Assembly (NCBI RefSeq): GCF_039523335.1
Contig: NZ_BAAAFC010000001.1
Location: 1,612,001-1,676,000 of the forward strand
Direction of reading: 5' to 3'
Origin: Marinobacter szutsaonensis
Lineage (GTDB): Bacteria; Pseudomonadota; Gammaproteobacteria; Pseudomonadales; Oleiphilaceae
Length of the DNA: 64,000 bases
This document shows, piece by piece, positions 9,239-24,619 of this stretch (position 1 is its first letter; each line of letters starts with the position of its first letter). Made by a program: the position numbers and the translations under genes. The notes under the pieces are model-generated. The model worked only from the letters and a program-made list of their open reading frames with translations, did not search any database and was not told the DNA's origin.

Positions 9239-9835
9239 ATGAACCAGCCGGACGATCCGGAAAACCTCGAGCAACTGCTGGACCGCCTGCGCACCCGCAC
9301 CGATGGCCAGGCAGAGGTTTCGGTGGCGGATATCCTGAGTGCGGTCGGGGAGCGTTCCTTCGGCCCCGTCGCCCTGGTGGCGGGTCTGGTTGTGGTTGCC
9401 CCCCTCATTGGCGACATTCCAGGCGTGCCCACCGTGCTCGGGTTGCTGGTATTGCTGACGCTTGGCCAGCTGCTGTTCCTGCGCCACTCCATCTGGCTAC
9501 CAGCAGCCCTTGCCAACCGGAGGGTGGCACAGGCGAAACTGACCAGGGGCCTGGACTGGGTGGAGAAACCCGCGCGCTACCTGGACCGGTACACCAGGCC
9601 ACGCCTGGTCTGGCTCACCCGGGGCGCGGGGCAATATCTAATGGCCCTGGTGTGTCTGTCGGTGGCGCTGGCCATGCCGGCCATGGAGGTGGTGCCTTTC
9701 AGTGCCAATGGTGGTGGGCTGGCGCTGATGGCGTTCGGGTTGGCGATGATCGCCCGGGACGGGTTGCTGGCACTGTTCGCGACAACGGTCACGCTGGGTA
9801 CTTTCTGGTTTGTGGTGTCCGGGTTGATGGGGTGA
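9239..9835 (+). CDS. ExoD-family membrane protein
   Basis: 198-residue protein of the exopolysaccharide synthesis ExoD family. The N-terminal 50 residues are soluble (LEQLLDRLR...VSVADILSAVGERSFGP). The GERSFGP-x-A segment and the following hydrophobic stretch with PLIGDIPGVPTV are family hallmarks. Three or four hydrophobic helices follow. ExoD was named from rhizobial mutants with exopolysaccharide and alkali-sensitivity phenotypes; its biochemical role is unknown. GGAGG lies upstream of the ATG. Cotranscription with the SDR is likely from the short gap. Confidence 0.85.
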   Translation: MNQPDDPENLEQLLDRLRTRTDGQAEVSVADILSAVGERSFGPVALVAGLVVVAPLIGDIPGVPTVLGLLVLLTLGQLLFLRHSIWLPAALANRRVAQAKLTRGLDWVEKPARYLDRYTRPRLVWLTRGAGQYLMALVCLSVALAMPAMEVVPFSANGGGLALMAFGLAMIARDGLLALFATTVTLGTFWFVVSGLMG

Positions 9836-9877: not shown

Positions 9878-10555
9878 TTACATCGAAAACCAGTTGCGCT
9901 TGATTTGCTCATAATCCTCTTTTCCGATAACCCCGGCTTCCGCCAGCCGGCGCATTTCCGCGACAGCCAGGGGAATTCGCCGTTTACCCTCGGGCAGCTG
10001 CCGCTGGCCACGGAGTATGCCTTCCCGGAGCTCGGTCAGGAACGAATCCACCTGCTCCCGGCTCGGGGTACGGGCGTCGATGGTGAATAACACCACATCG
10101 CTGTTCAAGGCCCGGAACTCGAAGATATGCCGGGTGGTGCGAACGGCGAGGGACATGAAGACGACGGCCAGCACCAGCGGTGCGATCAGCCAGGGCAGCG
10201 GTGCCGGGAATACCGAATACAGGGCCGCCGGTACAGTCATGCAGATAGCGCCGGCGAGCCAGAGGCCCAGCCGGTAATCCCGGATCTCCCTGGGTTCTTC
10301 CTGGACGAAGGTCAGATCAATCACCTGCTCCGGCAGGTCTTTCTTGCGCCGGTTGGTCTGGATCAGCAGGTAATGGCTGCTGAACCGTGTAAACAGTGTG
10401 CTGATTTTCGCGGATACCCGGGTCTGGCGCAGCCGGCGGTCAATCCGCCAGCTGTCCCGGGGCGGGACGCTCCAGCCGTCCCGTTGCATTTCAAGGTCTG
10501 GCACGCTCCATCGATCCAGTTCAATTACATCCTCCTGGGTCACAGCAATGGTCAC
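9878..10555 (-). CDS. Two-helix membrane protein at the end of the envelope operon
   Basis: 225 residues from a GTG start at 10553-10555, preceded by AAGGAGAC at good spacing; the open frame reaches 10645, but that part overlaps the upstream gene and has no ribosome site. Residues about 100-145 form two hydrophobic helices. The C-terminal 30 residues (AEMRRLAEAGVIGKEDYEQIKR) resemble a SHOCT-like helical motif. Function is not recognised. It lies 19 bases after the HzsA-like gene and is read in the same direction, so it is probably the last gene of the long operon. Confidence 0.72.
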   Translation of the reverse strand: MTIAVTQEDVIELDRWSVPDLEMQRDGWSVPPRDSWRIDRRLRQTRVSAKISTLFTRFSSHYLLIQTNRRKKDLPEQVIDLTFVQEEPREIRDYRLGLWLAGAICMTVPAALYSVFPAPLPWLIAPLVLAVVFMSLAVRTTRHIFEFRALNSDVVLFTIDARTPSREQVDSFLTELREGILRGQRQLPEGKRRIPLAVAEMRRLAEAGVIGKEDYEQIKRNWFSM

Positions 10556-10574
10556 GTTACGTCTCCTTATTCTT

Positions 10575-13493
10575 TTATTGTGTCGGGAATTCGAACTTGT
10601 CCGGGTCGTTGTAGATGTGCGCACCGCCATCCAGCCATTCCGCAATCAGGCGGAGCTCGGCTTCGGTGAGCATGCCCATGTGGCTCTCTCGGATCGCGGC
10701 GGTTTCCGCGGTTTCCACTTGGTACTCGTCGTCATCCGGGTCGTCATCGAACAGGCTGAAGAAGCGGGCACTGGCGATGGCGCCACGGCCGCTCATCAGG
10801 CGGCGGGCGAAGCATACGCCCGGGTCTGGGAGGACCGTCATGTCGCCCTGGACACCATCCGGGCACATGGTGGCAAGCTCCGAATCCGCCACTTCGACCC
10901 AGTCACCTCCCTCGGTCTGGCGGATGTAATAATCAGGCTCGAACAGCTCGACATAGGATTCGAGCTGGCGACCATCCCAGGAGGCATAGCCATCTCCCAG
11001 CAACAGGCCGTTCGAGGCGCCACTACCGGAGTCTCCGGGACAGGGCTTTCCGCCCTGTTCGGCGGCGGTGTGGCAATTCTGGCATGACGTGGTATTGCCG
11101 GTGTTCGGGTTGATCCGGCATTCCCGCCAGATCGGCTGGATGTGCTCCTGGTAGTTGATGGTGGCCTTGCAGTCCGCCGTCCAGTTGGTCAGGCAGCTCG
11201 GATCCGTGACCGGCTTCGGTGTGGTCAGGCCGCTGTAGCGAACTTCGAAGGCCAGGGATGGATCGGGTGGATTGGTCCAGAAATCCTCGAAATGCATGGT
11301 GTCCGCCCAGGTGGCCTGCAGGCCCTTGAGGGAGTCGATCAGGGCCTGGGCCATGGTGTCCTTCCACTGCACCGCCCGGATCTTCGGGTTGGCATTGGGG
11401 AACGGCATGCCGTCGCCCGGTGCACCCGGGTTGGCGGAGGCCAGTTCGACATCGGTCCGGGCATGGGGAATGTCCACTTCCGGATCGTGACAGCCATAGC
11501 ACTTGAGCTTCTCGCCCTCCTCCAGGCGCAGCGGCTGCGGGTGCTGCATCAGGTAGTTGTAGTTGTAATCCGGTGCGGCAATCAGATCCACCCGCTTGCC
11601 GTACTTGTTCACCACCTCGAAGCTGAAGTTGGTGTCCGCCGGTACCTTGACCATGGCGGAGCCGTCCGGCTCGACCATGGCATAAGAGAGAACATCGTAG
11701 AGAATACGGTTACCGGAACCCACCAGCGGTGTCAGACCCAGGGGCGGCTGCGGACCATCGGGCGGGTTCAGGATCTCGTCGGTCAGAATGGCCTGCTCCA
11801 GTTCCGGGGGAATCTGGCGTACGCCAACCACCCGGATGAAGCGTTCGGAGCGATCGTCTGGACGGGTCAGGCTGGGGTCGCGGCGGGTCTCGATGCCGCC
11901 GTCATACAGCTCGGCCATGTCGGCGCCGTCCATATCGTAGATGCTGCGGATCTCGAACAGGGCGGTGTTGTCTTCCAGTTGCAGGTCGTGGCGCTCACCG
12001 GTGTAGGGTTCAGCCAGCTCATTACGATCGGCGATGACGATATCGGTATAAAGAGCCTGCTTGTGGCCCTGGACCACCGGCAGCCGGGTATTCTCGATGG
12101 GGTCCACCATCCAGATGCCGTATCGGGGCTCACCCAGATTCTCGGTGGTGGCGCTGCCCTCACAGGGAGTACTGGTGGTGCCATCGGTGGTCAGGCATTG
12201 GGCCCAGCTGGCAAGCAGACGGGCAGAGCCATCGTTGTATGGCGCAACGGCGCTGTACCAGCCGTTCGGGGACACCTGGTTGGGGTAGAAGTTGACCAGC
12301 CCGGGAGTCATGGACTCCTCGGCTTCGCCGATCACGCTCTCGTCTACGGGCTTGCCGACAGCAAAGAAATTCTTGCTGTTGATCTTCACCACATCGCCGC
12401 CGTAAATCGGGTTGTAGATATGGCGCATGGTTGTCAGCAGGTTGCCGTCATCCAGGGGAATCGGGTCCATGTAATGGATGAAGGAGGCGTCGGAGAACTC
12501 CTCGCTCAGGCTGCCGAAGTAACGGTGCACGTTACCGCCGGCCGGCGTGATGCGGTACATGCTCAGCACGTCTTCCACGAACACCCGCTCGCCTTCGACT
12601 TCACCAGCCAGGGACGCGCTGCATTTGTCCTCTACGGTCCATTCCTTCGGATCCTCCAGGCCGGAGGGGAAGCCACCACCATTGCCCTGGCCGTACCCGC
12701 CGCCGTGGGGGTGCTGGTTGAAGTTGGGGTCGTCGATGTTTTCCAGGGTGCAGTCGGTCAGGGTTTCATAGATGCGGCCGAACCGGATGAACACCACATG
12801 TCCATCGTTCATGGTGCTCGGCTCGATGTCATGGAACTGGCCAAAGGTGATCTGCACCAGCTCGCTGCCGTCCGGCTTGACCGAGTGCAGCAGCGAGGCC
12901 GGCTCGTCGAAGTCTTCCAGGTACTCGCGCAGGTCCAGTTTCTGCCAGTCACCCCGGGAATGCTGGCGGCTGGAGGAGAAGATGATCCGGCCTTCGTTGG
13001 TGTAGGTGGGGTTGGTGTCCTCACCCGCATTGGCCACCAGATCGTCTTCGAAGATCCGTCGCACCTCACCGGTGGCGAAGGTGTACTCGAATATGTTCCA
13101 GGTGAAGTTGTCGGGGCTTTCCGCCGGGCCATGGGCGGCAAAGACCATGCGCTCGCCGTCCGGCGAGACATCCAGATCCTTGACGTCATAGTCCCCGCCG
13201 AAATACCCCGCCAGCACATGGCGTTCGTCCGAACTGAGAGCAATGCGGTCCCGCACCATCAGCTTTGCCCCGGGTTTGAACGCATAGGGCGCCCGGGGGT
13301 CCAGCGGCGGCCGGGCATTGACGGAGGCGGTCTCGCCCATGTCCGGGTAGTCCCGGACTACATAGGCAAAGGGCTGGTCGGAAAGCATTTCCTCCTGCCC
13401 TTCGCTGATCTGTCCCTCAAAACATCCGGTCAGCCCGACCAGTCCGAGGCTGGCCAGGGCCAGGAGGCGCAATCCGCTGCTAAATCCGATCAT
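10575..13493 (-). CDS. HzsA-like di-heme c-type cytochrome lipoprotein with a predicted beta-propeller
   Basis: 972-residue exported lipoprotein. The signal peptide ends in a lipobox LTGC, with Cys at about residue 24. The ATG at 13491-13493 is favoured over one seven codons upstream because AGAGAG precedes it. The first 500 residues contain repeated propeller-like strands (LDVSPDGERMVFAAHG, GRIIFSSSR). Two c-type heme motifs follow: CYGCH at 665-669 and CQNCH at 804-808. The arrangement recalls the HzsA-related proteins widespread outside anammox bacteria; I infer electron transfer or ligand binding, not hydrazine synthesis. It follows the TonB/AgmX-like gene after a 66-base gap holding a strong stem-loop. 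Confidence 0.82.
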   Translation of the reverse strand: MIGFSSGLRLLALASLGLVGLTGCFEGQISEGQEEMLSDQPFAYVVRDYPDMGETASVNARPPLDPRAPYAFKPGAKLMVRDRIALSSDERHVLAGYFGGDYDVKDLDVSPDGERMVFAAHGPAESPDNFTWNIFEYTFATGEVRRIFEDDLVANAGEDTNPTYTNEGRIIFSSSRQHSRGDWQKLDLREYLEDFDEPASLLHSVKPDGSELVQITFGQFHDIEPSTMNDGHVVFIRFGRIYETLTDCTLENIDDPNFNQHPHGGGYGQGNGGGFPSGLEDPKEWTVEDKCSASLAGEVEGERVFVEDVLSMYRITPAGGNVHRYFGSLSEEFSDASFIHYMDPIPLDDGNLLTTMRHIYNPIYGGDVVKINSKNFFAVGKPVDESVIGEAEESMTPGLVNFYPNQVSPNGWYSAVAPYNDGSARLLASWAQCLTTDGTTSTPCEGSATTENLGEPRYGIWMVDPIENTRLPVVQGHKQALYTDIVIADRNELAEPYTGERHDLQLEDNTALFEIRSIYDMDGADMAELYDGGIETRRDPSLTRPDDRSERFIRVVGVRQIPPELEQAILTDEILNPPDGPQPPLGLTPLVGSGNRILYDVLSYAMVEPDGSAMVKVPADTNFSFEVVNKYGKRVDLIAAPDYNYNYLMQHPQPLRLEEGEKLKCYGCHDPEVDIPHARTDVELASANPGAPGDGMPFPNANPKIRAVQWKDTMAQALIDSLKGLQATWADTMHFEDFWTNPPDPSLAFEVRYSGLTTPKPVTDPSCLTNWTADCKATINYQEHIQPIWRECRINPNTGNTTSCQNCHTAAEQGGKPCPGDSGSGASNGLLLGDGYASWDGRQLESYVELFEPDYYIRQTEGGDWVEVADSELATMCPDGVQGDMTVLPDPGVCFARRLMSGRGAIASARFFSLFDDDPDDDEYQVETAETAAIRESHMGMLTEAELRLIAEWLDGGAHIYNDPDKFEFPTQ

Positions 13494-13521
13494 GATGTCT
13501 CTCTCCACCTGCACATCCGTT

Positions 13522-13554
13522 GCACCGGTACCCGGCGGAGGCCGGGCCCGGTGC
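13522..13554 (-). promoter_or_regulatory. Stem-loop between the AgmX-like and HzsA-like genes
   Basis: Nested inverted repeats are present: GCACCGG (13522-13528) with CCGGTGC (13548-13554), and inside them CCCGGC (13531-13536) with GCCGGG (13541-13546) around GGAG. No T-run follows in the reading direction, so RNA processing, mRNA stabilisation or partial termination inside the operon is more likely than full termination. Confidence 0.5.
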
Positions 13555-13559
13555 GTTCA

Positions 13560-14507
13560 TCAACCAGGCATGAAATCAAACTTGTAATTGACGGGGGTGG
13601 CCGCCACGTCTTCCGGGCCAAACGAGATCATCTGGATCCGCGCCAGCAGTTTGAGCTCCAGACGCTGATCCCCCAGCTGGCTGTCCACCAGCTCGATGTC
13701 GGAGATACTACCGTCCGGCTCGATCACGATGTGGAAGACAAACTTGCCCTGCAGTCCGGGATCGCTGCGCAATGCCCGGTTGTAGAGCGCGTAGATGGCC
13801 CCCTTGTGCTGCTCGAAGACCCGCCGGATGGATTCCATGTCCCGGCCACCGGCCACCGTCGAGCTGCGTGAGCCACCGTTGCCACTGGCACCGCTGCCAC
13901 CACCACCGGAGCCATTGCCGATGGGGCTTTCCACCGCGGTGGAGCCTTTCCCGGCCAGCTGGGTACCGGAGCCGGTATCGTTCATCACCGAGCTGTTCAC
14001 ACCGCCACTGGTCTTGTTGGCCGAAGTGGCCCCCAGTACCGAGCGGGCAGCCTTGGCGGCGGCGCCGGTCTTCACGTTGGTGTTTTGAGCCTGAAGCTTG
14101 GCCACGTCAGCGGAGCTACGCAGGGCTGACAGTTCCTTGGAGAACGCCGCGACGCCCATCTTCGAAACCTTTTCCCGGGCCTTTTTCACTTCCTTGGCCG
14201 GTGCCGGCTCCGGAGCCGCCTTCTTGGCCTCGGTGGGCTCGGTTTTCTCTTCCTGCTTCACCGGCTCGGGTGGCGGAGGTGGCGGGGCCACCTTGCGTTG
14301 CTCGATCAGGACCTTGGCCAGGGTCGGGGGTACCCGCTCCTTCTCCTCCCGATCGATTTCCGGCAGCGGCAGCCAGGGAAAGATCACCGCCAGCAGCAGG
14401 AGCAGCAGCAACAAACGTTTGAGAATGCGTTTGAAGCGGCTGTCCTCGTCACCGCTGGCGTCCCAGGGCAATGAAAAGTCGTAAGGTGTTGCTGTCATTG
14501 CTGTCAT
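13560..14507 (-). CDS. TonB-like energy-transducing protein with AgmX/PglI C-terminal domain
   Basis: 315 residues, built like TonB: a short cytoplasmic N-terminus, one membrane helix at about 32-48, a periplasmic Pro/Glu/Lys linker with a run of six prolines near 75, a long Gly/Ser/Thr low-complexity region, and a C-terminal domain (about 222-315). That domain has the GKFVFHIVIEPDGSI core typical of the AgmX/PglI branch of TonB C-terminal domains. It should couple the ExbB/ExbD motor to a partner across the periplasm. Gene order ExbB-ExbD-ExbD-TonB with gaps of 19 bases or fewer supports one complex. In Myxococcus, proteins with this domain belong to the gliding machinery. Confidence 0.88.
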   Translation of the reverse strand: MTAMTATPYDFSLPWDASGDEDSRFKRILKRLLLLLLLLAVIFPWLPLPEIDREEKERVPPTLAKVLIEQRKVAPPPPPPEPVKQEEKTEPTEAKKAAPEPAPAKEVKKAREKVSKMGVAAFSKELSALRSSADVAKLQAQNTNVKTGAAAKAARSVLGATSANKTSGGVNSSVMNDTGSGTQLAGKGSTAVESPIGNGSGGGGSGASGNGGSRSSTVAGGRDMESIRRVFEQHKGAIYALYNRALRSDPGLQGKFVFHIVIEPDGSISDIELVDSQLGDQRLELKLLARIQMISFGPEDVAATPVNYKFDFMPG

Positions 14508-14520
14508 CGATTCCCTCCTG

Positions 14521-15030
14521 TCATGCGCCGCTGCTGCCGGATACCCGTGAAACGGCCATGGAGAGGTCCCGATAGTCCGCCTTGGCGCAGGTCAGCATCA
14601 CCCGCTTGAGCAGCGCGTAGGGGATTTCCTGGTCACCGAGGATGGTCACGGCACGCCCAAGGCTCTTCTCCCGCTCGGTCAGTTCCGTGCGCTTGCTGGC
14701 CTGGAACGTGAGCTCTTCCATCAGGCCATCGATCAGGCCATCGGAGGCAATCACCTCATCCAGGGTGGCGACCGGGCGGCCATCCACCAGGATGTCATCC
14801 TCGGTGATCGTCACCACGGTGGTCTCCTTCGGGCGTTCCTCTGCGGTCGAGTCCGGCAGGGCAACGTCGTTGACCTTGATCAGCTGGTTGGCACCGGAGT
14901 TCAACAGCAGGAAGAACACCAGGATGGTGAAGATATCCATGAGCGAGACCAGGTTGAGCTTGGCCGGCTTCATGAAGGTCTTGGCGCTGCTCTGGAGGCC
15001 GAAGGACGTGAACTTGTCGTTCGCGTTCAT
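14521..15030 (-). CDS. ExbD/TolR-type motor subunit with the canonical Asp
   Basis: 169-residue biopolymer-transport subunit. One membrane helix at about 27-46 carries the conserved proton-path aspartate (Asp32 in SLMDIFTILVFF). The periplasmic part shows the usual ExbD strands (DDILVDGRPVATLDEV) and a C-terminal ILGDQEIPYALLKRVM segment. The start ATG overlaps the upstream ExbD gene by four bases (ATGA), showing translational coupling. With the TolQ/ExbB protein it should form a proton-driven stator that energises the AgmX-like protein. Confidence 0.92.
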   Translation of the reverse strand: MNANDKFTSFGLQSSAKTFMKPAKLNLVSLMDIFTILVFFLLLNSGANQLIKVNDVALPDSTAEERPKETTVVTITEDDILVDGRPVATLDEVIASDGLIDGLMEELTFQASKRTELTEREKSLGRAVTILGDQEIPYALLKRVMLTCAKADYRDLSMAVSRVSGSSGA

Positions 15031-15557
15031 GACTTACCTCCCTTCTTGGGCGCATCCCCCAGGGAGATTTCCGGGAACAGCTCGACATCCACCGCATCGG
15101 TTACCACGACGGTCTTCGCGACCCGAAGGGTATCCATGGTGGACACCAGGGACTGGTAGGTGACGCCGGGCTCGGACAGCAGCAGGGCGTCGTTCTTGGC
15201 GATGTTCTTGGCCGCCAGCCGACGTTTGATCTCCTGCAGCACCTCGGAGAGGGTGCGGAAATTGTGGCGGGCTTCCTCGCCCTCGGCTTCGGGCTCAATC
15301 TTGTCAATGGTCTTGACCAGATTACCGCTGGGGTAATACACCTCGATGCCGGACTGCCGCACCACCACTTCCAGCTGCCGGTTCTCCTCGGCACTGGCGG
15401 TCTGGGCACCGGTCAGGTCGGGCAGATTGAGCTCCAGAATCGAGATATGGTTGAACACCATACTCATCAGCAGTACCGGCACCAGCACGATCATGAGGTT
15501 CATGAACGCCGTGATGTCGATATCCGCCTCTTCCTGTTCTCTGCGTTTTGTAAACAT
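15027..15557 (-). CDS. ExbD/TolR-type motor subunit with Asn in place of the membrane Asp
   Basis: 176-residue second ExbD paralogue. It has the N-terminal charged segment (REQEEADIDITAF) and a membrane helix at about 17-35. Aligned on the other ExbD, the proton-path aspartate is replaced by Asn20 (FMNLMIVLVPVLLM). The periplasmic domain is intact and contains an extra Glu-rich insert (EPEAEGEEARHN) near 90. It sits between ExbB (19 bases upstream) and the first ExbD (overlap of four bases). A hetero-oligomeric stator with one active and one inactive ExbD is the likely reading. Confidence 0.9.
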   Translation of the reverse strand: MFTKRREQEEADIDITAFMNLMIVLVPVLLMSMVFNHISILELNLPDLTGAQTASAEENRQLEVVVRQSGIEVYYPSGNLVKTIDKIEPEAEGEEARHNFRTLSEVLQEIKRRLAAKNIAKNDALLLSEPGVTYQSLVSTMDTLRVAKTVVVTDAVDVELFPEISLGDAPKKGGKS

Positions 15558-15576
15558 AAGGAATTACCCGCTGTGA

Positions 15577-16242
15577 TCAGGCGTCGGACTCACGCGTGTT
15601 AACAGCGCGACGATTGCTGCGAACGATGGTGTTCAGGGCCTTTACGCCGGCCATTTCGATGCTCTCGACGATTTCCAGGGTCTTGTTCTGCAGCAGGGAG
15701 TGGATCAGCAGCAGCGGGATCGCCGCGATCAGGCCGAAGGCCGTGGTGTTCATGGCCACCGAAATGGACTGGGACAGCAGCGTAGCCTTGTCCGCCGGAT
15801 CCGCGTTGGCCACGGCGGTAAAGGCGGCGATCAGACCGATGATGGTACCGAGCAGCCCCAGCAGGGTGGAGACGTTGGCCAGGATGGACAGGTAGTTGGT
15901 GCGCTTGGACAGGCGCGGAATGCTCTCCATCACGCCTTCCTGCATGGCGGCGTGGATGTCATCCCGGCGCGGGGAGGCTCGCATGGTGTCGAGACCAACG
16001 GAAATCAGACGTGAGATCGCGGAGTTGCCGGACTGGGCCGCCTGCTCGGCCTGATCGAATTTGTTTTCATTCATCAGCGGCAACAGTTCGCTGTAGGCGG
16101 ACCGGTTGGATTGGTAGGCCCGCTTGAGGAATACCCAGCGCTCCACCGCAATGGCCAGGCCGACAAACAGCACCAGGGCGATGGGGAACATGAAAGCGCC
16201 GCCTTCCTGGAAGAATGAAACAATGCTTGTGTAAACGTTCAT
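15577..16242 (-). CDS. MotA/TolQ/ExbB-type proton-channel protein
   Basis: 221-residue inner-membrane protein with the family's three helices: near 16-34, about 118-142 (LGLLGTIIGLIAAF) and about 160-182 (TTAFGLIAAIPLLL). The cytoplasmic loop between helices 1 and 2 is Arg-rich (RASPRRDDIH). No N-terminal extension is present, so it is TolQ-like in size. It is followed by two ExbD genes and the TonB-like gene, making a full ExbBD-TonB-type module. It is distinct from the cell-division Tol system, because tolA, tolB and pal are absent here. Confidence 0.93.
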   Translation of the reverse strand: MNVYTSIVSFFQEGGAFMFPIALVLFVGLAIAVERWVFLKRAYQSNRSAYSELLPLMNENKFDQAEQAAQSGNSAISRLISVGLDTMRASPRRDDIHAAMQEGVMESIPRLSKRTNYLSILANVSTLLGLLGTIIGLIAAFTAVANADPADKATLLSQSISVAMNTTAFGLIAAIPLLLIHSLLQNKTLEIVESIEMAGVKALNTIVRSNRRAVNTRESDA

Positions 16243-16283
16243 GGCAGGTCTCCAGACTTTTCTTTTCGTTCGGTTGCAGTTTT

Positions 16284-16604
16284 TCAGTTAGTGCTTTGCC
16301 CCGAGGGCCCGGCTGGGGCCTCCAGGGAAAGTTCGTCGTAGAAGCGCATGGTCCGGGCGTGTATGTCCCGATCCACCACTTCGAATACCCGGCCAGACAC
16401 CGACGTGATCGAGCGGTACAGGTTGTCCGGCCCCTCTGGTGGCTTCCAGGGGATGAAGTAACTCACCGACGGCTGCTCCTTGTCCCCGACAAAGGTACTC
16501 TCCAGATCGATGGACTCCTGGGCGCTGGCCGGAGCCGCAATCGCCCCACCCAGACACAGGGTCGCCGCAACGAGCCAGCCGGCCCCTGGATTCAGCATTC
16601 CCAT
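16284..16604 (-). CDS. Small secreted hypothetical protein
   Basis: 106 residues with an N-terminal signal peptide ending near APASAQE (about residue 28). The mature part of about 78 residues is mixed polar, with aromatic patches (SVSYFIPWKPPEG) and no Cys, so it should be a soluble periplasmic or surface protein. AGGAGA precedes the ATG at 16602-16604. I do not recognise a family. Its position between the TPR lipoprotein and ExbB suggests an accessory subunit of the envelope complex. Confidence 0.7.
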   Translation of the reverse strand: MGMLNPGAGWLVAATLCLGGAIAAPASAQESIDLESTFVGDKEQPSVSYFIPWKPPEGPDNLYRSITSVSGRVFEVVDRDIHARTMRFYDELSLEAPAGPSGQSTN

Positions 16605-16630
16605 GGCATTCTCCTAGTCCTGTTCTTCGC

Positions 16631-17494
16631 CTAGCCTTGTTCTTCGGTTTCCGGGGAGCCCCCGCCGGAGGCATCCGCTGAGACCGCCTCGCTTTCAGCG
16701 CCCTGTTCGGCAGGTGCCTCCGGTTCCGGGGGTGGGTTATCGATGAAACTGGTCTCAATGCCAGTCCGGCGGCGGATCTCGATGAGCCAGTCCGCCACTT
16801 TCGGATCCGAACCGCCGGTCAGGAAGTCGTAGGCCTCGTAATGGGGCTGGGCCTCCTCCGGCCGGTTCATGTAGAGGTCGTAGAGGATCGCCAGATTCAG
16901 GTGCGCCTCGGGGAAGTCGTTCCAGGTTTCCAGGGCCGCCAGATACGCATCCCGGGCCCTGGCAAATTCACCCTGGCGCCGCTCGAACACCGCCTGTTTC
17001 AGGTAGGCGTTGACGTTGGCCGGATTCACCTCCAGCGCCTTCTGGTAGTACTCCCGGGCCTTTTCGGGCTTCTCCCGCTGTTCGGCCAGCTCCGCCAGCT
17101 TCACCCAGGGACCGGAGAGTTCCGGAAAATCCTTGGTCATGGCCCAGAAGCCCTTGCGGGCCATGCGCAGATCCCCGTCTTTCATCAGGGCCACGGCATC
17201 GGCAAAAGCCGCCTGAGCGGCCGGGGGGACCGGCGCCGGCTGCTGGGTGTACGGGTTCGGTGCCGGCACATAGGGAATTTTCTTGCCCTCGGCATCGTAG
17301 GCCTGTTGCGGCAGGAACACGCCGCCGCTGCTCTCGGCCGGATCGGCTTGCGTTTCTTCCTCGGCGGGCCCGGATTCAACCGTTTTCGGCCCGGACTCGG
17401 TCTGCTTGACCGGCAGGACTCCGGCACAACCGGAGAGCAGGGTCAGCACCAGCAACGCTGCCGGAGTGGATGCCTTAACGGATGCCATCGCCAT
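16631..17494 (-). CDS. TPR lipoprotein of the envelope cluster
   Basis: 287 residues. The signal peptide ends in a lipobox LSGC with Cys at residue 23. A disordered Glu/Pro/Ser linker follows, then three or four tetratricopeptide repeats at about 90-230 (KPEKAREYYQKALEVNPANV is typical). The C-terminus is acidic and low-complexity. The start overlaps the end of the preceding gene by 20 bases; a second in-frame ATG at 17488 has better spacing from GGTGG. Size and architecture resemble the TPR lipoprotein GltE of the Myxococcus gliding complex, but that equivalence is inference. Confidence 0.85.
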   Translation of the reverse strand: MAMASVKASTPAALLVLTLLSGCAGVLPVKQTESGPKTVESGPAEEETQADPAESSGGVFLPQQAYDAEGKKIPYVPAPNPYTQQPAPVPPAAQAAFADAVALMKDGDLRMARKGFWAMTKDFPELSGPWVKLAELAEQREKPEKAREYYQKALEVNPANVNAYLKQAVFERRQGEFARARDAYLAALETWNDFPEAHLNLAILYDLYMNRPEEAQPHYEAYDFLTGGSDPKVADWLIEIRRRTGIETSFIDNPPPEPEAPAEQGAESEAVSADASGGGSPETEEQG

Positions 17495-20324
17495 ACGCCA
17501 CCTTTACTTCCTGTTTGTCGAACCGGGCGGGGTTGAGCTTGGCCATCGCCTCGAAACTCCGCTCGATCCAGGGATTGAATGTGCCGCTCCAGGAGCGCTC
17601 GATGTTGGCCTGGTGCACTTCGATGGCCAGGTCCTCGAACGGAATGGCCTGTTCTTCCAGCACCAGCTCGTATTGCATGGCTTCCAGCTGGCTCAGGCCG
17701 CTGGGCCGCGGCGCGTCCATCAGCTCCCGGGCAAACTGACCGTAGAGATCGGCAATGTTGAAAGTGGCCCGTGTGGTCTGGTCGAGCACGCCGTAGTCGG
17801 CTGCCTGCTGGTAACGGTCCAGGGCGTTCTTGAGCTTCTCGTTCTTGCGCGGAATGCTCTTGTTGAGCGGGTGCTTCAGGCGCACGCGATCAAACTCGAT
17901 GCGCCAGTAGTCGCCGTACTTGTTGTTGGCCCAGGCCGCCAGCCAGGCAGAGCGGTCCGACTGCCAGTTCTCCGGGGCCTTGTTGTGGCCATCGATGACC
18001 CGGCGCAACCAGTACAGGTGGCGGTGGTAGTCGTCCCGGCGCTCGTACAGGTAGGCGACGTGGTAACGGGCTTCCATCCGCGTATCGAAAGGTTCTTCGT
18101 AGTCGAAGGCCCACTTCTTGAAGTACTCCAGGGCCTGGTCCTCGTTCCCGGCTTTCTCATACAGTTCCGCCGCCAGGAACAGGGCATCCCGGCGCACGTC
18201 GGCGCGGTCGTCGGTCCGGTAGATTTCTTCGTACTCGGTGGCGGCCATCTGCCACTGCTCGTCCTGCTCGTAGGTCCAGGCGATCTTCTGGTCCAGGTCC
18301 TTCGCCAGCTTGTGGTTCGGGAACAGGCGCCGCAGCTCCAGCATTTCCGTCAGGGCCGGCTCCCACTCCTCCAGGGTCAACAGGTGGGTGGCGGCGTCAA
18401 ACTGAGCCACAACGCGGACATCGGTCTTCGGAGCCACCGCCTTGATGCGCAGGAAGTGATCGATGGCGCCTTCCAGGTCCTTGGCGGCCAGGGCCTGTTC
18501 ACCCTGTTTGTAGATGGTGACCGCCATGCGCTCGGTAACTGCCTTGAACTCGGGATCGTCCAGGTCGATGTAACGCAGCTGGTTGCGGTAGCCTTCCTCG
18601 GCCGCGGCAAAATCTGCCAGTTCGTACTGACTGTGGGCGATGACACCCCAGGCGGTGCGGTTGAGCTCGCGATCCACCTCGCCGGCCTTGCTGACGATGC
18701 TGGTGGCCACTTCCAGTGCTTTTTCGTAACGGCCCAGGGCGAACAGCTCTTCCGAGGTCTTGGCCAGCACGGCACCGGAGCGTTCGTCATCCCGGAAGGT
18801 CTGCACAAATCGCAGCTGGCTCTCCACGCCCTTGCTGCGCCAGTCACGGAGCCGCTCGCTGTCCTTACCCGCCTGGGCGATCAAACGCTCGGCCTCTTTC
18901 TGATAGGCGATGATGGCGGCGTAGCCGGCGTCGGCCCCGAACTCGGAGTTGCCGAACTCGTAGGCGGTGCGTTCGTAGTGGGTGATGGCGGTGGGGAAAT
19001 CGCCACCATCGAAGGCGGCTTCGGCGCGCATATAGACCATTTCCGGGACTTTCGGGTCGTTCGGGAAAGTCTGCTCAAACTCGCCATAGAACTGGGCCGC
19101 CTTCAGGAAGCTGGTCTGGCGTGTGGACTCGGCGGCTGCCACGGCAGACGCCTTGATCGCGCCATCCGCCAGTTCCCGGGTCAGGCGCTGGCCGGTGGCG
19201 TGGTAATGCCTGGCCAATTCGTCGATGAAGGTCTTCAAGTTGGGAATGACCTTGGCTTTCACCTCCGCCGGTTTGGTCTTCCAGAACTCGGAATGAACGC
19301 CGTAGTTACGCACGTAGTTCTCTTTCTCCGGCAGCACCTGCTGGGAGAACTCGCCATCGACATAGGCACGGATCATCTCGGCGTGCATCTCCGGCGCCCG
19401 CTCGGAGTCCGGGTTCTGCACCACGAAGGCCCGGAACGAGGACGCGGAATCCTCATACCGCTCCTTCTCCAGGTAGTGCTGGCCGAGGCTGGAATAGAGA
19501 ATCCAGGTGTACTTCTTCGCCTCCGGCCGGTTGGCGAACATGCTGTCGATCTTGGAGGAGCCGCCGGCATAGGCCAGGCCCACACTCATGATGCGCAGGG
19601 TGTCGTCCACCAGGGAGCGATTGACCTTGTCGAGCTTCTCGATCTTGCCATCCTCGGGCACCAGCCGGTCGAGGACACGGGAGAAGGACATCAGGCTCCG
19701 GTCGTAATCGGACAGTTTGTACTGGGACCAGCCGAGCAGGTACCAGGAGTTGTTCAGGAACGCGGATTCCTGGCCGATGGCCACCACCGAACGGTAGGCC
19801 TGCTCCGCCTGCTCATACTCCTCGTGCCGGAAGTGGATGTCGCCCTTGCGGAAATACACCTCCGCCAGCCGATGTGAGTGCGGATGCTCGGTGATGAACT
19901 CTTCCAGCACAGCCTTGGCTTCCTGGTCGCGGCCATCCAGATCGTAGGCCTTGGCCAGCTGGTACATGGCCTCGGCGTTGCGTTCGGAATCCGGGTACTT
20001 GTTGAGCAGCTGGTGATAGGCAGTGATCGCTTCGGGGAAGTAGCCATCCTCGCCCGGCATCACGCCACGAAGCTGATCGTAGTCTCCCTCCAGCATGTAC
20101 ACGCTGGCAATGCGGCGCTCGATCTGCTCGTACAGTCGCCGGTCCTCGATGGTTTCCAGCAGTTCCCGATATTCCCGGCGCACGTCTTCGTGCATTACCC
20201 TCGGCAGGGGCACATCCTCCAGTGGCTTTTGTTCCTTCTGGAGGCTGGCAATGGTCGAGGGATTCTGGAAGGTGCCACAGCCGCTGACCATGACCGCCAG
20301 CATGAGGAGACTAGATCGTTTCAT
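17475..20324 (-). CDS. Large TPR-repeat lipoprotein
   Basis: 949-residue exported protein with a lipobox VSGC (Cys16) and tetratricopeptide repeats over nearly its whole length. Examples are EAITAYHQLLNKYPDSERN near 105, EEYEQAEQAYRSVV near 170 and DQALEYFKKWAFDYEEPFD near 725. It should form a long superhelical scaffold anchored to the outer membrane by its lipid. It overlaps the upstream TPR gene by 14 bases and the downstream one by 20, so the three are coupled. The length is unusual for a lone TPR lipoprotein. The partner is unknown; the operon suggests a periplasmic scaffold for the ExbBD-AgmX motor. Confidence 0.88.
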   Translation of the reverse strand: MKRSSLLMLAVMVSGCGTFQNPSTIASLQKEQKPLEDVPLPRVMHEDVRREYRELLETIEDRRLYEQIERRIASVYMLEGDYDQLRGVMPGEDGYFPEAITAYHQLLNKYPDSERNAEAMYQLAKAYDLDGRDQEAKAVLEEFITEHPHSHRLAEVYFRKGDIHFRHEEYEQAEQAYRSVVAIGQESAFLNNSWYLLGWSQYKLSDYDRSLMSFSRVLDRLVPEDGKIEKLDKVNRSLVDDTLRIMSVGLAYAGGSSKIDSMFANRPEAKKYTWILYSSLGQHYLEKERYEDSASSFRAFVVQNPDSERAPEMHAEMIRAYVDGEFSQQVLPEKENYVRNYGVHSEFWKTKPAEVKAKVIPNLKTFIDELARHYHATGQRLTRELADGAIKASAVAAAESTRQTSFLKAAQFYGEFEQTFPNDPKVPEMVYMRAEAAFDGGDFPTAITHYERTAYEFGNSEFGADAGYAAIIAYQKEAERLIAQAGKDSERLRDWRSKGVESQLRFVQTFRDDERSGAVLAKTSEELFALGRYEKALEVATSIVSKAGEVDRELNRTAWGVIAHSQYELADFAAAEEGYRNQLRYIDLDDPEFKAVTERMAVTIYKQGEQALAAKDLEGAIDHFLRIKAVAPKTDVRVVAQFDAATHLLTLEEWEPALTEMLELRRLFPNHKLAKDLDQKIAWTYEQDEQWQMAATEYEEIYRTDDRADVRRDALFLAAELYEKAGNEDQALEYFKKWAFDYEEPFDTRMEARYHVAYLYERRDDYHRHLYWLRRVIDGHNKAPENWQSDRSAWLAAWANNKYGDYWRIEFDRVRLKHPLNKSIPRKNEKLKNALDRYQQAADYGVLDQTTRATFNIADLYGQFARELMDAPRPSGLSQLEAMQYELVLEEQAIPFEDLAIEVHQANIERSWSGTFNPWIERSFEAMAKLNPARFDKQEVKVAYGDGIR

Positions 20325-22089
20325 CGCCGCTTCCCTCCTCTGGAGACGGTTGGCTTTGCGCCTGTTCGGGAGCTGGATCTACAGGCACCTCCTCGTCCGG
20401 GTTCAGTGTCTGCAGGGACCGGTCCAGAATCCGCACCTTGGCCAGCTGGGCTTCGACCTGGTATTGCTCCAGCCGCTGCTCGTGGATGTCCAGTTCGGTG
20501 GTCACCAGCGCCAGCATCACGTCTTCCAGACGGGCGATCAGGCTTTCGGTCTGGACCAGCCGGGCGTCCACCTCGGCCATCATGCGAGTGACCGACTGCT
20601 CAAAATAGCTGTTGTCCGAGAGCGCCTTGCTGCCCTCGAGCGCGGCCAGCGCGCTTTCAGCCCGGGTGATTTCAAAGGTGAGGTCCTCGAGCAGCCATTC
20701 GATGGACTCGCGTTTGTCTTCGGGCAGTCCGGCCAGGCGGGCCTTCAAGGCCTCACGCCGATCCCGGGCATCGGCCAGGGAACGGAAGATCAGGCGTACC
20801 CGATCGCCATGGCTCGGGCCATCGGCACTGCCGGCGCGGGCGGCCATGATGGTGTCAAAGTCGGATCGGCGCTCTTTCCAGCGCTCGAGGTTGTTGCGAA
20901 TGGCATACAGATCCCGCAGATCCTTCAGTACCGACTGGAAACTGTGGTCCGACATCAGTTCCACCAGGAACGGCGAGAGACGGTTGACCGCCACCGCCGG
21001 AGCCCTGCCGAACCAGTCGCTCTCGTCCAGCACGTCATCGAGGTTGCGGACGAAAAGTTCCAGCACATCGGCGTCCTGCAGGCCCTCCCGAGCCGTTTGC
21101 AGATCCCTCAGGGTGGTCCGGAACTGCCGGTCTGCGGCAATGAAATCCTTGGCCGCGCGACCTTCCAGGCCCATGCGCTCGTAGACATGGGGGCGCAGGA
21201 GGATGGCTTCCTGCACTTCCGGCAGCGCCAGGGAGCGGGTGGTCAGCACGTCCAACGGGGCCAGGGCCCGTCGGAATTCGCCGGCATTGATGGCCATCCA
21301 GCTGGCTCCCAGCAGGCCCCGGTTGGAGTAGGCACCGGTGGTGTTGATGCTGGCCAGCTGCAATCCTGCGTTCAGGTTGTCCTCGTGGCTGGCGTAGACA
21401 TGGGCCAGGGCCATGCGTGCGCGGTCCGCCAGGCGCTGCAGCTCAGCAGACCCGTCATTGAGGTCCAGGACCCGGTTCAGGGCATCGATGGCATCGCTGG
21501 TGCGGCCCTGCCCTTCCAGGGCTATGGCGAGGTTGAAGTAGAAGTAGGGCGCGTAGGGGCTGTCCTCGCTGATGGTGTCGGCCACCGTCTTGCCGGCATC
21601 CAGGTAGCCCAGCTTCACGTTGACCAGCGCGGCCAGGTAGCGGTACTCGGCATCGACGCTATCGGGCAGCTCGCCACGGATCTGGTTCAGGTTGCGGGCA
21701 GCGGTGTCGGCCTCACCGCGCAGATACTGCATCTTGCCCAGGAAGAAACGAGCCCGGTTGCGCACCGGCTCGCTAAGGTTGCTCTCCGCGAGGCGGTCAA
21801 AGATGGATTCGGCCTGCTCATCCAGACCGTAGGACAGGCTGACGCCGCCCTTGAGCAGTTCAGGGTAAGTACCGTGGTTGGCGATGCCGCCCTGCTCCTC
21901 GGCCCAGGCGTACTCGACCAGGGTTTCAAAATAGTTCTGTTGGTAGTACTGGAACAGGACTGCGCCGTACTTGAGGTCCCGGGCTTCCGTTTCGGACGCC
22001 GATACCATCGCTGCCGACGGTAGAGCGAGCATCAGTGCCGCTAACGTCCGGAGGGATTTTGCCTGCTGAAGTGCGCGCCGGAGAATCAT
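20311..22089 (-). CDS. TPR and coiled-coil periplasmic protein
   Basis: 592 residues with a basic N-terminus and a signal peptide cleaved near residue 31 (ALPSAAMVSASE); there is no lipobox. Helical repeats fill about 40-330, including a YFNLAIALEGQGRTSDAIDAL unit near 190. From about 420 to 570 the sequence looks coiled-coil (LIARLEDVMLALVTTELDIH). A Gln/Pro/Glu tail ends the protein. It starts three bases after the upstream gene and overlaps the next by 14. It looks like a second scaffold protein of the same machine; GltD of Myxococcus is a loose analogue. Confidence 0.85.
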   Translation of the reverse strand: MILRRALQQAKSLRTLAALMLALPSAAMVSASETEARDLKYGAVLFQYYQQNYFETLVEYAWAEEQGGIANHGTYPELLKGGVSLSYGLDEQAESIFDRLAESNLSEPVRNRARFFLGKMQYLRGEADTAARNLNQIRGELPDSVDAEYRYLAALVNVKLGYLDAGKTVADTISEDSPYAPYFYFNLAIALEGQGRTSDAIDALNRVLDLNDGSAELQRLADRARMALAHVYASHEDNLNAGLQLASINTTGAYSNRGLLGASWMAINAGEFRRALAPLDVLTTRSLALPEVQEAILLRPHVYERMGLEGRAAKDFIAADRQFRTTLRDLQTAREGLQDADVLELFVRNLDDVLDESDWFGRAPAVAVNRLSPFLVELMSDHSFQSVLKDLRDLYAIRNNLERWKERRSDFDTIMAARAGSADGPSHGDRVRLIFRSLADARDRREALKARLAGLPEDKRESIEWLLEDLTFEITRAESALAALEGSKALSDNSYFEQSVTRMMAEVDARLVQTESLIARLEDVMLALVTTELDIHEQRLEQYQVEAQLAKVRILDRSLQTLNPDEEVPVDPAPEQAQSQPSPEEGSGDETI

Positions 22090-22092
22090 GGC

Positions 22093-22773
22093 TTACCACT
22101 CCCGGACCATGAATTCGGGCTGCTGACGGGCTTCGGAGTCAGCCACGGCCAGCTCGACGAACTTGGGGCCCTGCTCCTTGGTGAACCTCAGGCTGCTGCC
22201 ACGCTTGTACTCGCGGCCATTGGGTCCCTGGCCGACGAAAAACGCGGACAGGGTGTGCTGACCCGGGCTCAGATTGCCCAGGTACAGCTGGTGCTTGCCG
22301 CCCTTCGCCAGGGCCTGGCGTTCTTCGGCGCTGTACAGGTAGGTGGACACCACGCGGTTATCCAGGCGCAGCTCGACCCCTTCGAGGCGGAAATACTCAC
22401 CGACATTCAGGGAAACGAAAACGTGGAACCGGGTATTGGCCGGGAACAGCAGATCTTCCTCGAGCACGCGAAGATCCTTGTTCAGGGTGACCACGGTCTG
22501 TTTGAGATCCTGGATATCCCGGGACAATTCGTTCACCGCCCGCTGCGCCCGCTCCCGGCTTTCCCGGACGGACAGCGGAGTCTCGATGATGCGATCCAGG
22601 GCCACGCCCGCTGCAGATTCTCCGGATTCTTCCTGGCCTCCGGTTGCCGGCTCGGCGGCAAAAACCGGCCCGGCCGCAAGGGCCAGGCACAACACCACCA
22701 GAATCCCAAGACGGCTCCACAACACGGTGCCGGCAGCACCACTCAGTCCATTTTTAAATTGAAAAGCCACCAT
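22093..22773 (-). CDS. First operon gene: exported coiled-coil protein
   Basis: 226 residues from the ATG at 22771-22773, which has AGGAG five bases upstream; the frame runs open to 22827 with no ribosome site there. A membrane-spanning signal region (ILVVLCLALAAGPVFAAE) is followed by a short coiled coil at about 60-100 (ELSRDIQDLKQTVVTLNKDL). The C-terminal half is beta-rich and ends in SEARQQPEFMVREW. The phrase LSPGQHTLSAFFVGQGPNG suggests an Ig- or PEGA-like domain. No family name is certain. As the first gene downstream of the divergent promoter region it should set expression of the whole leftward operon. Confidence 0.78.
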   Translation of the reverse strand: MVAFQFKNGLSGAAGTVLWSRLGILVVLCLALAAGPVFAAEPATGGQEESGESAAGVALDRIIETPLSVRESRERAQRAVNELSRDIQDLKQTVVTLNKDLRVLEEDLLFPANTRFHVFVSLNVGEYFRLEGVELRLDNRVVSTYLYSAEERQALAKGGKHQLYLGNLSPGQHTLSAFFVGQGPNGREYKRGSSLRFTKEQGPKFVELAVADSEARQQPEFMVREW

Positions 22774-23159
22774 CCTGCTCCTGCGCCGGCTTGCCTGGGG
22801 CGTACGCCGACAACGCTTGATGCACATTCAGGGGGCTGACTTTCAGGTTGCCCGACTTTGCTTCCGAAGGCTCTTTTTCGCGGCCTCTTTCTTTGGAGCG
22901 GTCAGGTTCTTTTCGGGAATGCTTCAATCGTCAAATTGTGTGAAATACGCTAGCACAGGTTCCCGAAATAAAAACGAATGATTTGACTTCTGATTTTGTT
23001 TCTGTGGAGGGCATCTCAAAAAACCGAAGTGACAGTTGCCCAACGCCAGAATGGCGGCCAAAGTTCCCCGCAATTCAAAATTTTTTTGTTTAAAAACATT
23101 TATTTACATTGTTTAACGTATTTTTACATTTAACGCGGGTGGTCAAGCTGGTGATCAGG
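22774..23159. promoter_or_regulatory. Divergent control region of the envelope cluster
   Basis: About 390 non-coding bases between the leftward operon and the rightward beta-barrel pair. The right part (about 23070-23135) is strikingly AT-rich against a GC-rich background. It contains a plausible rightward promoter, TTTACA (23103-23108) and TACATT (23125-23130) at 16 bases, which would leave a leader of about 20-30 bases. No convincing leftward hexamers or operator were found. Confidence 0.45.
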
Positions 23160-23960
23160 ATGACGTGCAGAACCACATCTCGATTGAGCCGGTCTCGCCG
23201 GGGCGATTTCAGAAACCGGTGGGTACCGGCATTGTTCACAGCGCTGGTGCTGACCGCCGGAGCCTCCCCCGGGGTATCACAGGCTGCGGATCCCGCCCCT
23301 GTCCTGGAGGTGGCGGATCCCTTTATCGAGCTGCACACGGCACCCGGCCGGGGTTATCCGGTTTTTCATGTGATTGAAAAGGGCGAGCAGGTCGAGCTGC
23401 TGAAGCGGAAAACCAACTGGTACAAGGTGAAAGCCGTTTCCGGCGAAACCGGCTGGACCAAGGCCACGCAACTGGGCCGAACACTGCAACCGACAGGCCT
23501 TCCCGCTGATCTGCCCGAGGTCACCCATGGTCAGTACCTGGAATCGAGCTGGCGGGTGGGCTTTACCGCCGGCATGTTCGAGGAGTCCCCGAGTTTCAGC
23601 CTGACCGCCGGCTACCGGCCACTAACCTGGCTCGGCGCCGAACTGGAAGCGGGCAAGATCTACAACGAGTCCGTGACCAGCGACTACTACGGCGCCAACC
23701 TGGTGATCGAGCCCCTGCACCAGTGGTCCCTCACCCCCTACGTCCTTGCCGGCTACAGCCAGTTCTCCTTTGATGCGCGGCAGAAAGTACTGCTGAGCGA
23801 GCTCGGCGATGCCGATGGTGTCACCTTTGGCGGCGGACTGGGTTACTACATTGGCAGGAATTTCCTGATTCGGGCCGAGTACCGGGTGTACTCGGTGTCG
23901 TCCAATTCTGACAGCACAGGTCTAAGCGAATGGAAAATCGGTCTAAACACCTTCTTTTGA
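23160..23960 (+). CDS. SH3-domain outer-membrane beta-barrel protein
   Basis: 266 residues from the ATG at 23160; the frame opens at 23109, but no ribosome site supports a longer form. After a basic N-terminus and signal peptide (ending near SQAAD), residues about 45-110 form a bacterial SH3 domain (PFIELHTAPGRGYPVFHVI, then GETGWTKATQL). The rest alternates aromatic and small residues as in an eight-stranded barrel (FGGGLGYYIGRNFLIRAEY) and ends in Phe-Phe, a signal for BAM insertion. It fits the SH3-plus-barrel type seen with AgmX-like loci. The next gene overlaps it by 31 bases. Confidence 0.85.
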   Translation: MTCRTTSRLSRSRRGDFRNRWVPALFTALVLTAGASPGVSQAADPAPVLEVADPFIELHTAPGRGYPVFHVIEKGEQVELLKRKTNWYKVKAVSGETGWTKATQLGRTLQPTGLPADLPEVTHGQYLESSWRVGFTAGMFEESPSFSLTAGYRPLTWLGAELEAGKIYNESVTSDYYGANLVIEPLHQWSLTPYVLAGYSQFSFDARQKVLLSELGDADGVTFGGGLGYYIGRNFLIRAEYRVYSVSSNSDSTGLSEWKIGLNTFF

Positions 23961-24619
23961 GCACCCGGAAACCACGGGGCATCAGTACTGCGCTGTTAAC
24001 CGGTCTACTCGCCCTGACGCCGATGGGGCCTTTGCAGGCGCAGGAGGGAGGCTCGGCGCCGGTGCAGGTCATCGAGCCTGACATCGAGCCCAGAAGCATC
24101 AGCGAAGCGGATATTGATTCGGAGTTCTTCGAGGTTGGCGCCTTTGCCGGGATGCTGACGATCGATAACTTCAGCAGCGAACCACTTGTTGGCGTCAGCG
24201 CCGCGTTCCACGCCACCGAGGATTTCTTCCTGCAGTTCAACTACGGCATGAGCGAGGCCGGCCTGACCTCTTTCGAGGAGCTCAGTGGCGCCAATGTCCG
24301 CCTGCTCACGGACGATGACCGGGACTACAGCTACTACGATTTCCTGGTGGGCTACAACATCTTTCCCGGGGAGATCTTCTTCAGCGATTCGCTGACCTTC
24401 AACTCGGCGTTCTACCTGGTCGGTGGCGTCGGCAACACCGAATTCGGTGGCGAAAGCAATTTCACCACCACCATCGGGACCGGGTTCCGTATCGTGCTGC
24501 TGGACTGGCTGACGGTACACGTCGACTTCCGTGACCACATGTTCAACAGCGACCTGATCCGCGAATCCCAGCTGACCCACAACATCGAACTGTCTTCAGG
24601 CATCACCCTGTTCTTCTGA
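23930..24619 (+). CDS. Outer-membrane beta-barrel protein
   Basis: 229 residues with a signal peptide ending at about PLQAQE (residue 38). An acidic stretch (EPDIEPRSISEADIDSEFFE) leads into a barrel-like region with strands such as FFLQFNYGMSEAGL and DFLVGYNIFPGEIFF, ending in terminal Phe-Phe. It starts inside the preceding barrel gene (31-base overlap in another frame), so the two are translated together. It resembles the outer-membrane barrel family found in myxobacteria and some gammaproteobacteria. Together the two barrels could be the outer-membrane exit or anchor for the adjacent ExbBD-AgmX machine. Confidence 0.85.
   Translation: MENRSKHLLLSTRKPRGISTALLTGLLALTPMGPLQAQEGGSAPVQVIEPDIEPRSISEADIDSEFFEVGAFAGMLTIDNFSSEPLVGVSAAFHATEDFFLQFNYGMSEAGLTSFEELSGANVRLLTDDDRDYSYYDFLVGYNIFPGEIFFSDSLTFNSAFYLVGGVGNTEFGGESNFTTTIGTGFRIVLLDWLTVHVDFRDHMFNSDLIRESQLTHNIELSSGITLFF

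What the first reader, a model, noticed from the sequence alone, without database searches (positions are those of the whole stretch)
9878..24619. Agl/Glt-like trans-envelope machine with an embedded di-heme HzsA-like lipoprotein
Eleven leftward genes with overlaps or short gaps, plus two divergent outer-membrane barrels, encode parts for every envelope layer: TolQ/ExbB, two ExbD, a TonB/AgmX-like transducer, three TPR scaffolds (two lipidated), a coiled-coil exported protein and two barrels. The same mix defines the Myxococcus gliding/Agl-Glt complex, and related cores are known in non-gliding gammaproteobacteria. What looks new is a 972-residue beta-propeller lipoprotein with two CxxCH heme motifs inside the operon, linking a proton-driven machine to redox chemistry. 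Possible roles include surface adhesion, cargo export or contact with insoluble or hydrophobic substrates such as oil.
Basis: partly seen in the sequence, partly recalled or inferred. Interest (0 to 1): 0.8.

Follow-up and report, generated by a model that had tools for sequence, protein, structure and literature searches.

The report
Proton-driven envelope machine with heme lipoprotein
A Marinobacter bacterium carries a relative of the proton-driven machine that myxobacteria use to glide, and in many related bacteria this machine goes together with a heme-carrying lipoprotein and two outer-membrane barrels, which suggests that some of these envelope motors serve redox chemistry rather than movement.

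Summary
Window 9878-24619 (Marinobacter) has eleven tightly packed leftward genes plus two divergent barrels: TolQ-type protein, two ExbD, GltG-like TonB transducer, three TPR proteins, a coiled-coil protein, a small exported protein and a 972-residue lipoprotein with two CxxCH motifs and the hydrazine-synthase-alpha (HzsA) fold. Seven of these gene kinds are the Agl/Glt core already published for gammaproteobacteria. What I did not find in print is its partner: the heme lipoprotein and the barrels form a conserved trio. Of 274 gammaproteobacterial genomes, 39 have the heme gene and 38 of those the core (Fisher p 1.5e-28), 28 of 38 on one contig, all within 4-19 kb. Many relatives add DUF3570, TlpA and ApbE (flavin/thioredoxin proteins); the window clade's loci lack them. 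A second core in this genome lacks the trio. ExbD1 has Asn at the pore Asp position in 63 of 64 sequences, ExbD2 Asp in 65 of 65, suggesting a one-carboxylate motor. The tyrosine ligand of the hydrazine-forming heme is missing in 44 of 44, so this is not hydrazine synthase. Best reading: a redox-coupled variant of the Glt chassis; physical coupling, electron flow and substrate are untested.

The parts
9878..10543 (-). clade-specific protein of about 221 aa with a hydrophobic region at about residues 94-137, no Pfam or NCBIfam match; last gene of the operon; start codon inferred
   Evidence: relatives seen only in window-clade loci
10575..13493 (-). 972-aa diheme lipoprotein: TolB-like propeller, HzsA-type middle domain with CxxCH, C-terminal c-type heme domain
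13560..14507 (-). GltG-like TonB/TolA-type transducer with AgmX/PglI C-terminal domain (NF033768)
   Evidence: 61.3 bits, cut-off 40
14521..15030 (-). ExbD2: ExbD/TolR-type subunit with pore Asp32
15027..15557 (-). ExbD1: ExbD/TolR-type subunit with Asn20 at the pore Asp position
15577..16242 (-). TolQ/ExbB/AglR-type proton channel subunit
   Evidence: PF01618, 95.6 bits
16284..16604 (-). small protein, 106 aa, signal peptide by eye, found at this place in most core loci seen
16631..17494 (-). TPR lipoprotein (GltE-like by place and weak profile)
17475..20324 (-). 949-aa TPR lipoprotein (GltD-like by size and place only); marker used for the core
20311..22089 (-). TPR/coiled-coil protein, signal peptide by eye (GltC-like by weak profile)
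22093..22827 (-). coiled coil followed by an Ig/transthyretin-like beta-sandwich; its counterpart is fused to the TPR protein in the second core
23109..23960 (+). OMP1: SH3 domain plus small outer-membrane barrel (start uncertain)
23930..24619 (+). OMP2: outer-membrane barrel of family TIGR04565 (OMP_myx_plus)
   Evidence: 164 bits, cut-off 60

Best explanation
The locus encodes a trans-envelope machine built on the Agl/Glt core, in which an outer-membrane unit made of two small barrels and a diheme HzsA-fold lipoprotein takes the place held in Myxococcus by the GltA/GltB barrels and the GltK (CglC) lipoprotein. Inferred mechanism: TolQ with one working (Asp) and one pore-silent (Asn) ExbD uses the proton gradient to drive the GltG-like transducer across the cell wall; the TPR lipoproteins and the coiled-coil protein relay the force; the barrel pair holds or gates the heme lipoprotein at the outer membrane, where it passes electrons or binds a redox ligand. 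In many relatives electrons could reach it through a thioredoxin/flavin chain (TlpA, DUF4266, flavinylated DUF3570, ApbE); in the window clade another donor or acceptor, such as a soluble c-type cytochrome, would have to serve. Shown: gene content, conserved order, co-occurrence, linkage, heme motifs, predicted HzsA fold, Asp/Asn pattern. Inferred: physical coupling, position in the outer membrane, heme loading, electron transfer, force transmission.
Against: No experiment and no interaction prediction ties the heme protein to the motor. The window clade lacks much of the usual company: no DUF3570 in the own genome, no c0, c3 or LamG protein in six window-clade genomes, and no TlpA or ApbE cluster member in 11 window-clade loci (not sought genome-wide), so electron flow by that chain is not essential to the pairing. 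In 10 of 38 genomes heme gene and core are on different contigs, and in G028 they lie on two long contigs, some 50 kb or more apart. The core occurs without the heme gene in 25 of 63 core genomes. Glt equivalog models score far below cut-off. The fold match to HzsA has a large overall rmsd (8.8 A), so domain arrangement is uncertain.
Confidence: 0.6

Rival explanations
1. The core is a generic outer-membrane assembly or maintenance machine (in the manner of Tol-Pal); the heme lipoprotein and barrels are merely its clients, placed or kept at the outer membrane by it, and the redox work does not depend on force.
Against: 39 of 43 trio-bearing cores fall in one clade, which suggests adaptation of the core to this partner, though common descent alone could give the same.
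Confidence: 0.25
2. The heme protein is a sensor or structural part: hemes and HzsA fold stabilise a binding propeller (for polysaccharide or surface ligands), and the machine is an adhesion or surface-polymer device without electron transfer.
For: The window clade keeps the heme protein without the usual neighbours; a LamG-type domain is present in a neighbour of relatives; distant relatives carry PA14, PKD and fibro-slime domains.
Against: Both CxxCH and candidate axial His residues are invariant, and four of the six most frequent neighbours in relatives are of redox type (LamG protein with CxxCH, DUF3570, TlpA, ApbE).
Confidence: 0.1
3. Gliding or other surface motility powered by this core, with the heme protein as an adhesin.
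For: Resemblance of the chassis to the Agl/Glt core.
Against: Luciano et al. 2011 call the core genes not sufficient for motility and gliding undocumented in most bearers (PMC3169522, passages); the GltG, GltJ, GltE and GltC models are far below cut-off.
Confidence: 0.05

Closest known systems
Agl/Glt core complex of gammaproteobacteria (Luciano et al. 2011, PMC3169522)
   Same: aglR, Q, S and gltD, E, G, C-type genes in one region; that paper already notes duplicated cores in two Marinobacter
   Different: Partner trio with diheme lipoprotein; one ExbD with Asn at the pore position; the word cytochrome does not occur in that paper's main text
Myxococcus xanthus gliding (Agl-Glt) and sporulation (Agl-Nfs) machines
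   Same: TolQ/ExbD motor, TonB-like transducer, TPR proteins, barrel pair
   Different: Far below the GltG/J/E/C equivalog cut-offs; both AglQ and AglS are said to have the pore Asp (PMC9389320, passages)
Hydrazine synthase alpha subunit (HzsA, PDB 5C2V) and the wider HZS_alpha family
   Same: Propeller, middle domain with CxxCH, C-terminal heme domain; colinear profile match and fold match
   Different: Lipoprotein; no Tyr at CxxCH His+4 in 44 of 44 rows (Tyr591 per PMC12607021, passages); no beta or gamma subunit recognised beside it
DUF3570/DUF4266/thioredoxin/ApbE flavinylation clusters (Meheust et al. 2021, PMC8238504)
   Same: DUF3570, TlpA and ApbE cluster members adjoin the trio in many relatives, DUF4266 in at least three loci
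   Different: Not in the window; no DUF3570 in its genome. That paper's main text does not contain the words ExbD, gliding or hydrazine
Tol-Pal
   Same: TolQ/R-like motor, TonB/TolA-like transducer, YbgF-like TPR, TolB-like propeller
   Different: Two ExbD, heme motifs, no Pal or TolB N-terminal domain match in the operon; other TolQ/ExbB-type genes, two of them scoring higher, exist in the genome besides the two cores

Membership tests
Agl/Glt core complex (Luciano Group B) | One ExbB-type, two ExbD-type, one TonB-type and three TPR genes in a single region | tested here: met
Agl/Glt core complex (Luciano Group B) | GltG/GltJ-type C-terminal domain (AgmX/PglI) | tested here: met
   NF033768 61.3 bits, cut-off 40
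Agl/Glt core complex (Luciano Group B) | Sequences fall in one clade with the M. xanthus genes | not testable with these tools
   I had no M. xanthus sequences; the tree holds sequences from the class of the window only
M. xanthus gliding machine | GltG, GltE, GltC equivalog scores above curated cut-offs | tested here: not met
   38.7 of 650, 25.7 of 225, 18.8 of 450 bits
M. xanthus gliding machine | GltA/GltB-type barrel pair homologous to the Myxococcus proteins | tested here: inconclusive
   OMP2 matches TIGR04565 OMP_myx_plus, 164 bits; no direct comparison with GltA/GltB was made
AglRQS motor | Pore Asp in both ExbD-type subunits | tested here: not met
   ExbD1 Asn 63 of 64, ExbD2 Asp 65 of 65; the Asp in both AglQ and AglS is taken from PMC9389320 (passages)
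Hydrazine synthase alpha | Homology over propeller, middle domain and C-terminal heme domain | tested here: met
   the Pfam hit is below cut-off (23.7 of 26.6) and above it (28.5)
Hydrazine synthase alpha | Tyr ligand of heme alpha-I at CxxCH His+4 | tested here: not met
   0 of 44 rows
Hydrazine synthase alpha | Beta and gamma subunits encoded alongside | tested here: inconclusive
   No such gene recognised by Pfam in the operon and its near flanks; no search with HzsB or HzsC was made
DUF3570 flavinylation cluster | DUF3570 present | tested here: not met
   0 in own genome; cluster members in 53 of 69 loci outside the window clade, one of them checked by Pfam
Tol-Pal | TolB N-terminal domain and Pal (OmpA domain) | tested here: not met
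   No such Pfam match among the proteins of the locus

The most novel reading that the evidence does not exclude
A force-coupled redox machine: the proton-driven motor moves, displays or gates an outer-membrane diheme lipoprotein through a barrel pair, so that electron exchange with an extracellular partner is mechanically controlled. It would be a third use of the Glt chassis after gliding and spore-coat assembly, run by a motor with a single working carboxylate, and a candidate for the unexplained surface electron exchange of Marinobacter.
Probability: 0.3. Interest if true: 0.85.

Novelty: new variant of a known kind. Interest (0 to 1): 0.62.

Why it matters
Luciano et al. left the function of the Glt core in non-gliding bacteria open in 2011, and my searches showed no later answer. 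A partner module that occurs almost only where the core occurs (38 of 39) gives a concrete handle: delete the trio or the motor and look for a redox phenotype. It also gives part of a large HzsA-fold family of unknown function a setting, joins DUF3570 flavin clusters to a motor, and offers a natural motor with an Asp/Asn ExbD pair for testing how 5:2 rotary motors work. For Marinobacter, one paper states that no mechanism of metal oxidation or electrode electron exchange had been described (PMC8233155, introduction read).

Full report
What is there. The window lies in a 3.96 Mb genome of Marinobacter: the closest named match of the heme gene is M. pelagius at 97%. Eleven leftward genes run from 22827 to 9878 with gaps between -20 and +66 bp, and two rightward barrel genes start at about 23109. 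Pfam and NCBIfam give MotA/TolQ/ExbB (95.6 bits), two ExbD (52 and 37.9 bits), an AgmX/PglI C-terminal domain (61.3 bits, cut-off 40) and TPRs in three proteins, two of them with lipoboxes. The heme protein has a PD40 propeller match, an HZS_alpha match (23.7 bits, cut-off 26.6; 28.5 bits in the genome search), a lipobox and two CxxCH. Rfam finds only a tmRNA in the window; a scan of 22700-23250 gives one promoter-like site, 9 of 12 positions, at 23103-23130 (+), against 0.2 in shuffles.

The chassis is known. Luciano et al. 2011 (PMC3169522; abstract, section 6 and passages read) described a conserved core of aglR, Q, S and gltD, E, G, C, with one additional gene, in one region of several gammaproteobacteria, of unknown function and not sufficient for gliding, with duplications in two Marinobacter among others. 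The window fits in content. The Glt equivalog models of NCBIfam are matched only weakly: GltG 38.7 of 650, GltE 25.7 of 225, GltC 18.8 of 450 bits, and the long TPR protein shows no Glt model among its hits. So I file it as core-like, not as a gliding machine.

The trio is the new element. Among 38 genomes of the genus and order (own included), the heme gene is in 18 and the close form of the core (long TPR protein over 400 bits, 31% identity or more) in 19: the same 18 plus G037. In 16 of 18 they share a contig. In G035 the contigs are short; in G028 heme gene and core lie on separate contigs of 126 and 360 kb. Across the class, 274 genomes were searched at E 1e-30: heme gene 39, core 63, both 38, Fisher p 1.5e-28; 28 of 38 lie on one contig, all within 4.0-18.8 kb, median 6.9 kb; in the other 10 they are on different contigs. 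The one exception, G071, has a heme-gene remnant with in-frame stops and without CxxCH in the 3.2 kb examined, three of the usual neighbours, and no core hit. The tool drew the genomes evenly from the class; kinship was not corrected for in the Fisher test. Core without the heme gene: 25 of 63. I read core stretches of 24 of these 25 genomes (all but G207). Two of them (L175 with both barrels, L185 with OMP2 at a contig end) carry TlpA and DUF3570, and two more (L181, L189) ApbE beside the core, so the redox neighbours can occur without the heme gene.

Two layouts. In the 69, OMP1 follows the heme gene on the same strand in 67; in the other two the contig ends inside the heme gene (L137) or 73 bp behind it (L141). 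Core genes were seen inside the held stretch in 45 of 80 (11 of 11 and 34 of 69); many stretches are short, and the remaining 35 were not followed up. In the window clade the barrels are divergent upstream of the core and the heme gene sits after the GltG-like gene (L062-L066). Outside the clade, loci carry members of cluster c0 (54 of 69, no Pfam match), a LamG protein with CxxCH (53), DUF3570 (53), c3 (47, no Pfam match), a TlpA-type thioredoxin (40) and ApbE (25), and DUF4266 in at least three; one member of each kind was checked by Pfam. None of the first six was seen in the 11 window-clade loci. DUF3570 is absent from the window's genome, and c0, c3 and the LamG protein from six window-clade genomes, while the two other Marinobacter genomes tested have all three (c0 with one stop in G009). 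TlpA, ApbE and DUF4266 were not sought genome-wide. Meheust et al. 2021 (PMC8238504, passages) showed that DUF3570 is flavinylated by ApbE and listed ApbE/DUF3570/thioredoxin/DUF4266 clusters of uncertain function; their main text does not contain ExbD, gliding or hydrazine. Of 52 DUF3570-cluster sequences aligned here, all keep a first S/T-x-A-S/T stretch; in the second, Ser/Thr at the first place is kept in 33, Ala in 50 and the last Ser in 52. This is compatible with their two [S/T]GA[S/T] motifs, no more.

Two cores in one genome. The same genome has a second core at C1:385000-405000 without trio; six further cores of that type in other Marinobacter are alike. A tree of 82 long-TPR sequences puts 39 of 43 trio loci in one 40-row clade (SH-aLRT 99), the trio-less Marinobacter paralogues elsewhere. 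Caveats: rows were gathered partly through the heme gene; L078 and L082 were labelled trio although their heme gene is on another contig; L175 and L185 were labelled by OMP2 alone; the tree came from a quick search, and the program warned of long branches.

The motor. ExbD1 has Asn at the pore Asp position in 63 of 64 sequences (the exception, L175, has Asp), ExbD2 Asp in 65 of 65; near-identical rows were not removed. A review states that AglQ and AglS both have the conserved Asp and that it is not known whether they form heterodimers (PMC9389320, passages). The simplest inference is an ExbD1/ExbD2 heterodimer with one proton-carrying residue. The Asn occurs in cores with and without trio, so it belongs to the chassis.

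Barrels. OMP2 belongs to TIGR04565 OMP_myx_plus (164 bits, cut-off 60), and 2209 of 8000 scored candidates in the protein collection match its profile. In M. xanthus GltA and GltB are paired barrels that stabilise each other and GltC, and the lipoprotein CglC (GltK), encoded divergently beside gltBAC, aids their insertion (PMC4488436, abstract and passages). In M. algicola the order heme lipoprotein-OMP1-OMP2-DUF3570-coiled coil-GltC-like (L106) recalls that arrangement. Homology of the barrels to GltA/GltB was not tested.

Reading. I take the locus as a redox variant of the Glt chassis: chassis kept, outer-membrane unit exchanged. That the heme protein goes with the core is well supported by distribution; that force and electrons meet is inference.

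Noticed in passing
G000:C1:385000-405000 (L080): Second, trio-less Glt-like core in the same genome; its coiled-coil and TPR genes are fused, and two conserved genes beside it (by eye an AAA/MoxR-type ATPase and a VWA-type protein) recur in seven Marinobacter genomes.
   Followed up: partly
window 15027-15557 and 14521-15030: Asn versus Asp at the pore position of the two ExbD proteins, nearly invariant across the gammaproteobacterial cores read.
   Followed up: yes
L206 (G071): Decayed trio: heme-gene remnant with in-frame stops and no CxxCH, c0/LamG/c3 genes present, no core hit in the genome.
   Followed up: partly
L073:1940-4954: Heme protein with a C-terminal extension and a third CxxCH.
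   Followed up: no
P0082-P0110: Distant relatives of part of the heme protein carry PA14, PKD and fibro-slime-type domains.
   Followed up: no
L067 and L144: A second OMP1/OMP2 pair between the trio and the core.
   Followed up: no
window 7591-7955: tmRNA gene; WS/DGAT wax-ester synthase at 6099-7517 and ExoD at 9239-9835 nearby.
   Followed up: no
literature: M. atlanticus ACP86_00815-00830: A TonB-C/ExbD/ExbD/ExbB set whose TonB-C gene was less expressed in a rubredoxin mutant on electrodes (PMC8233155, passages); it may be one of the two Marinobacter cores.
   Followed up: partly
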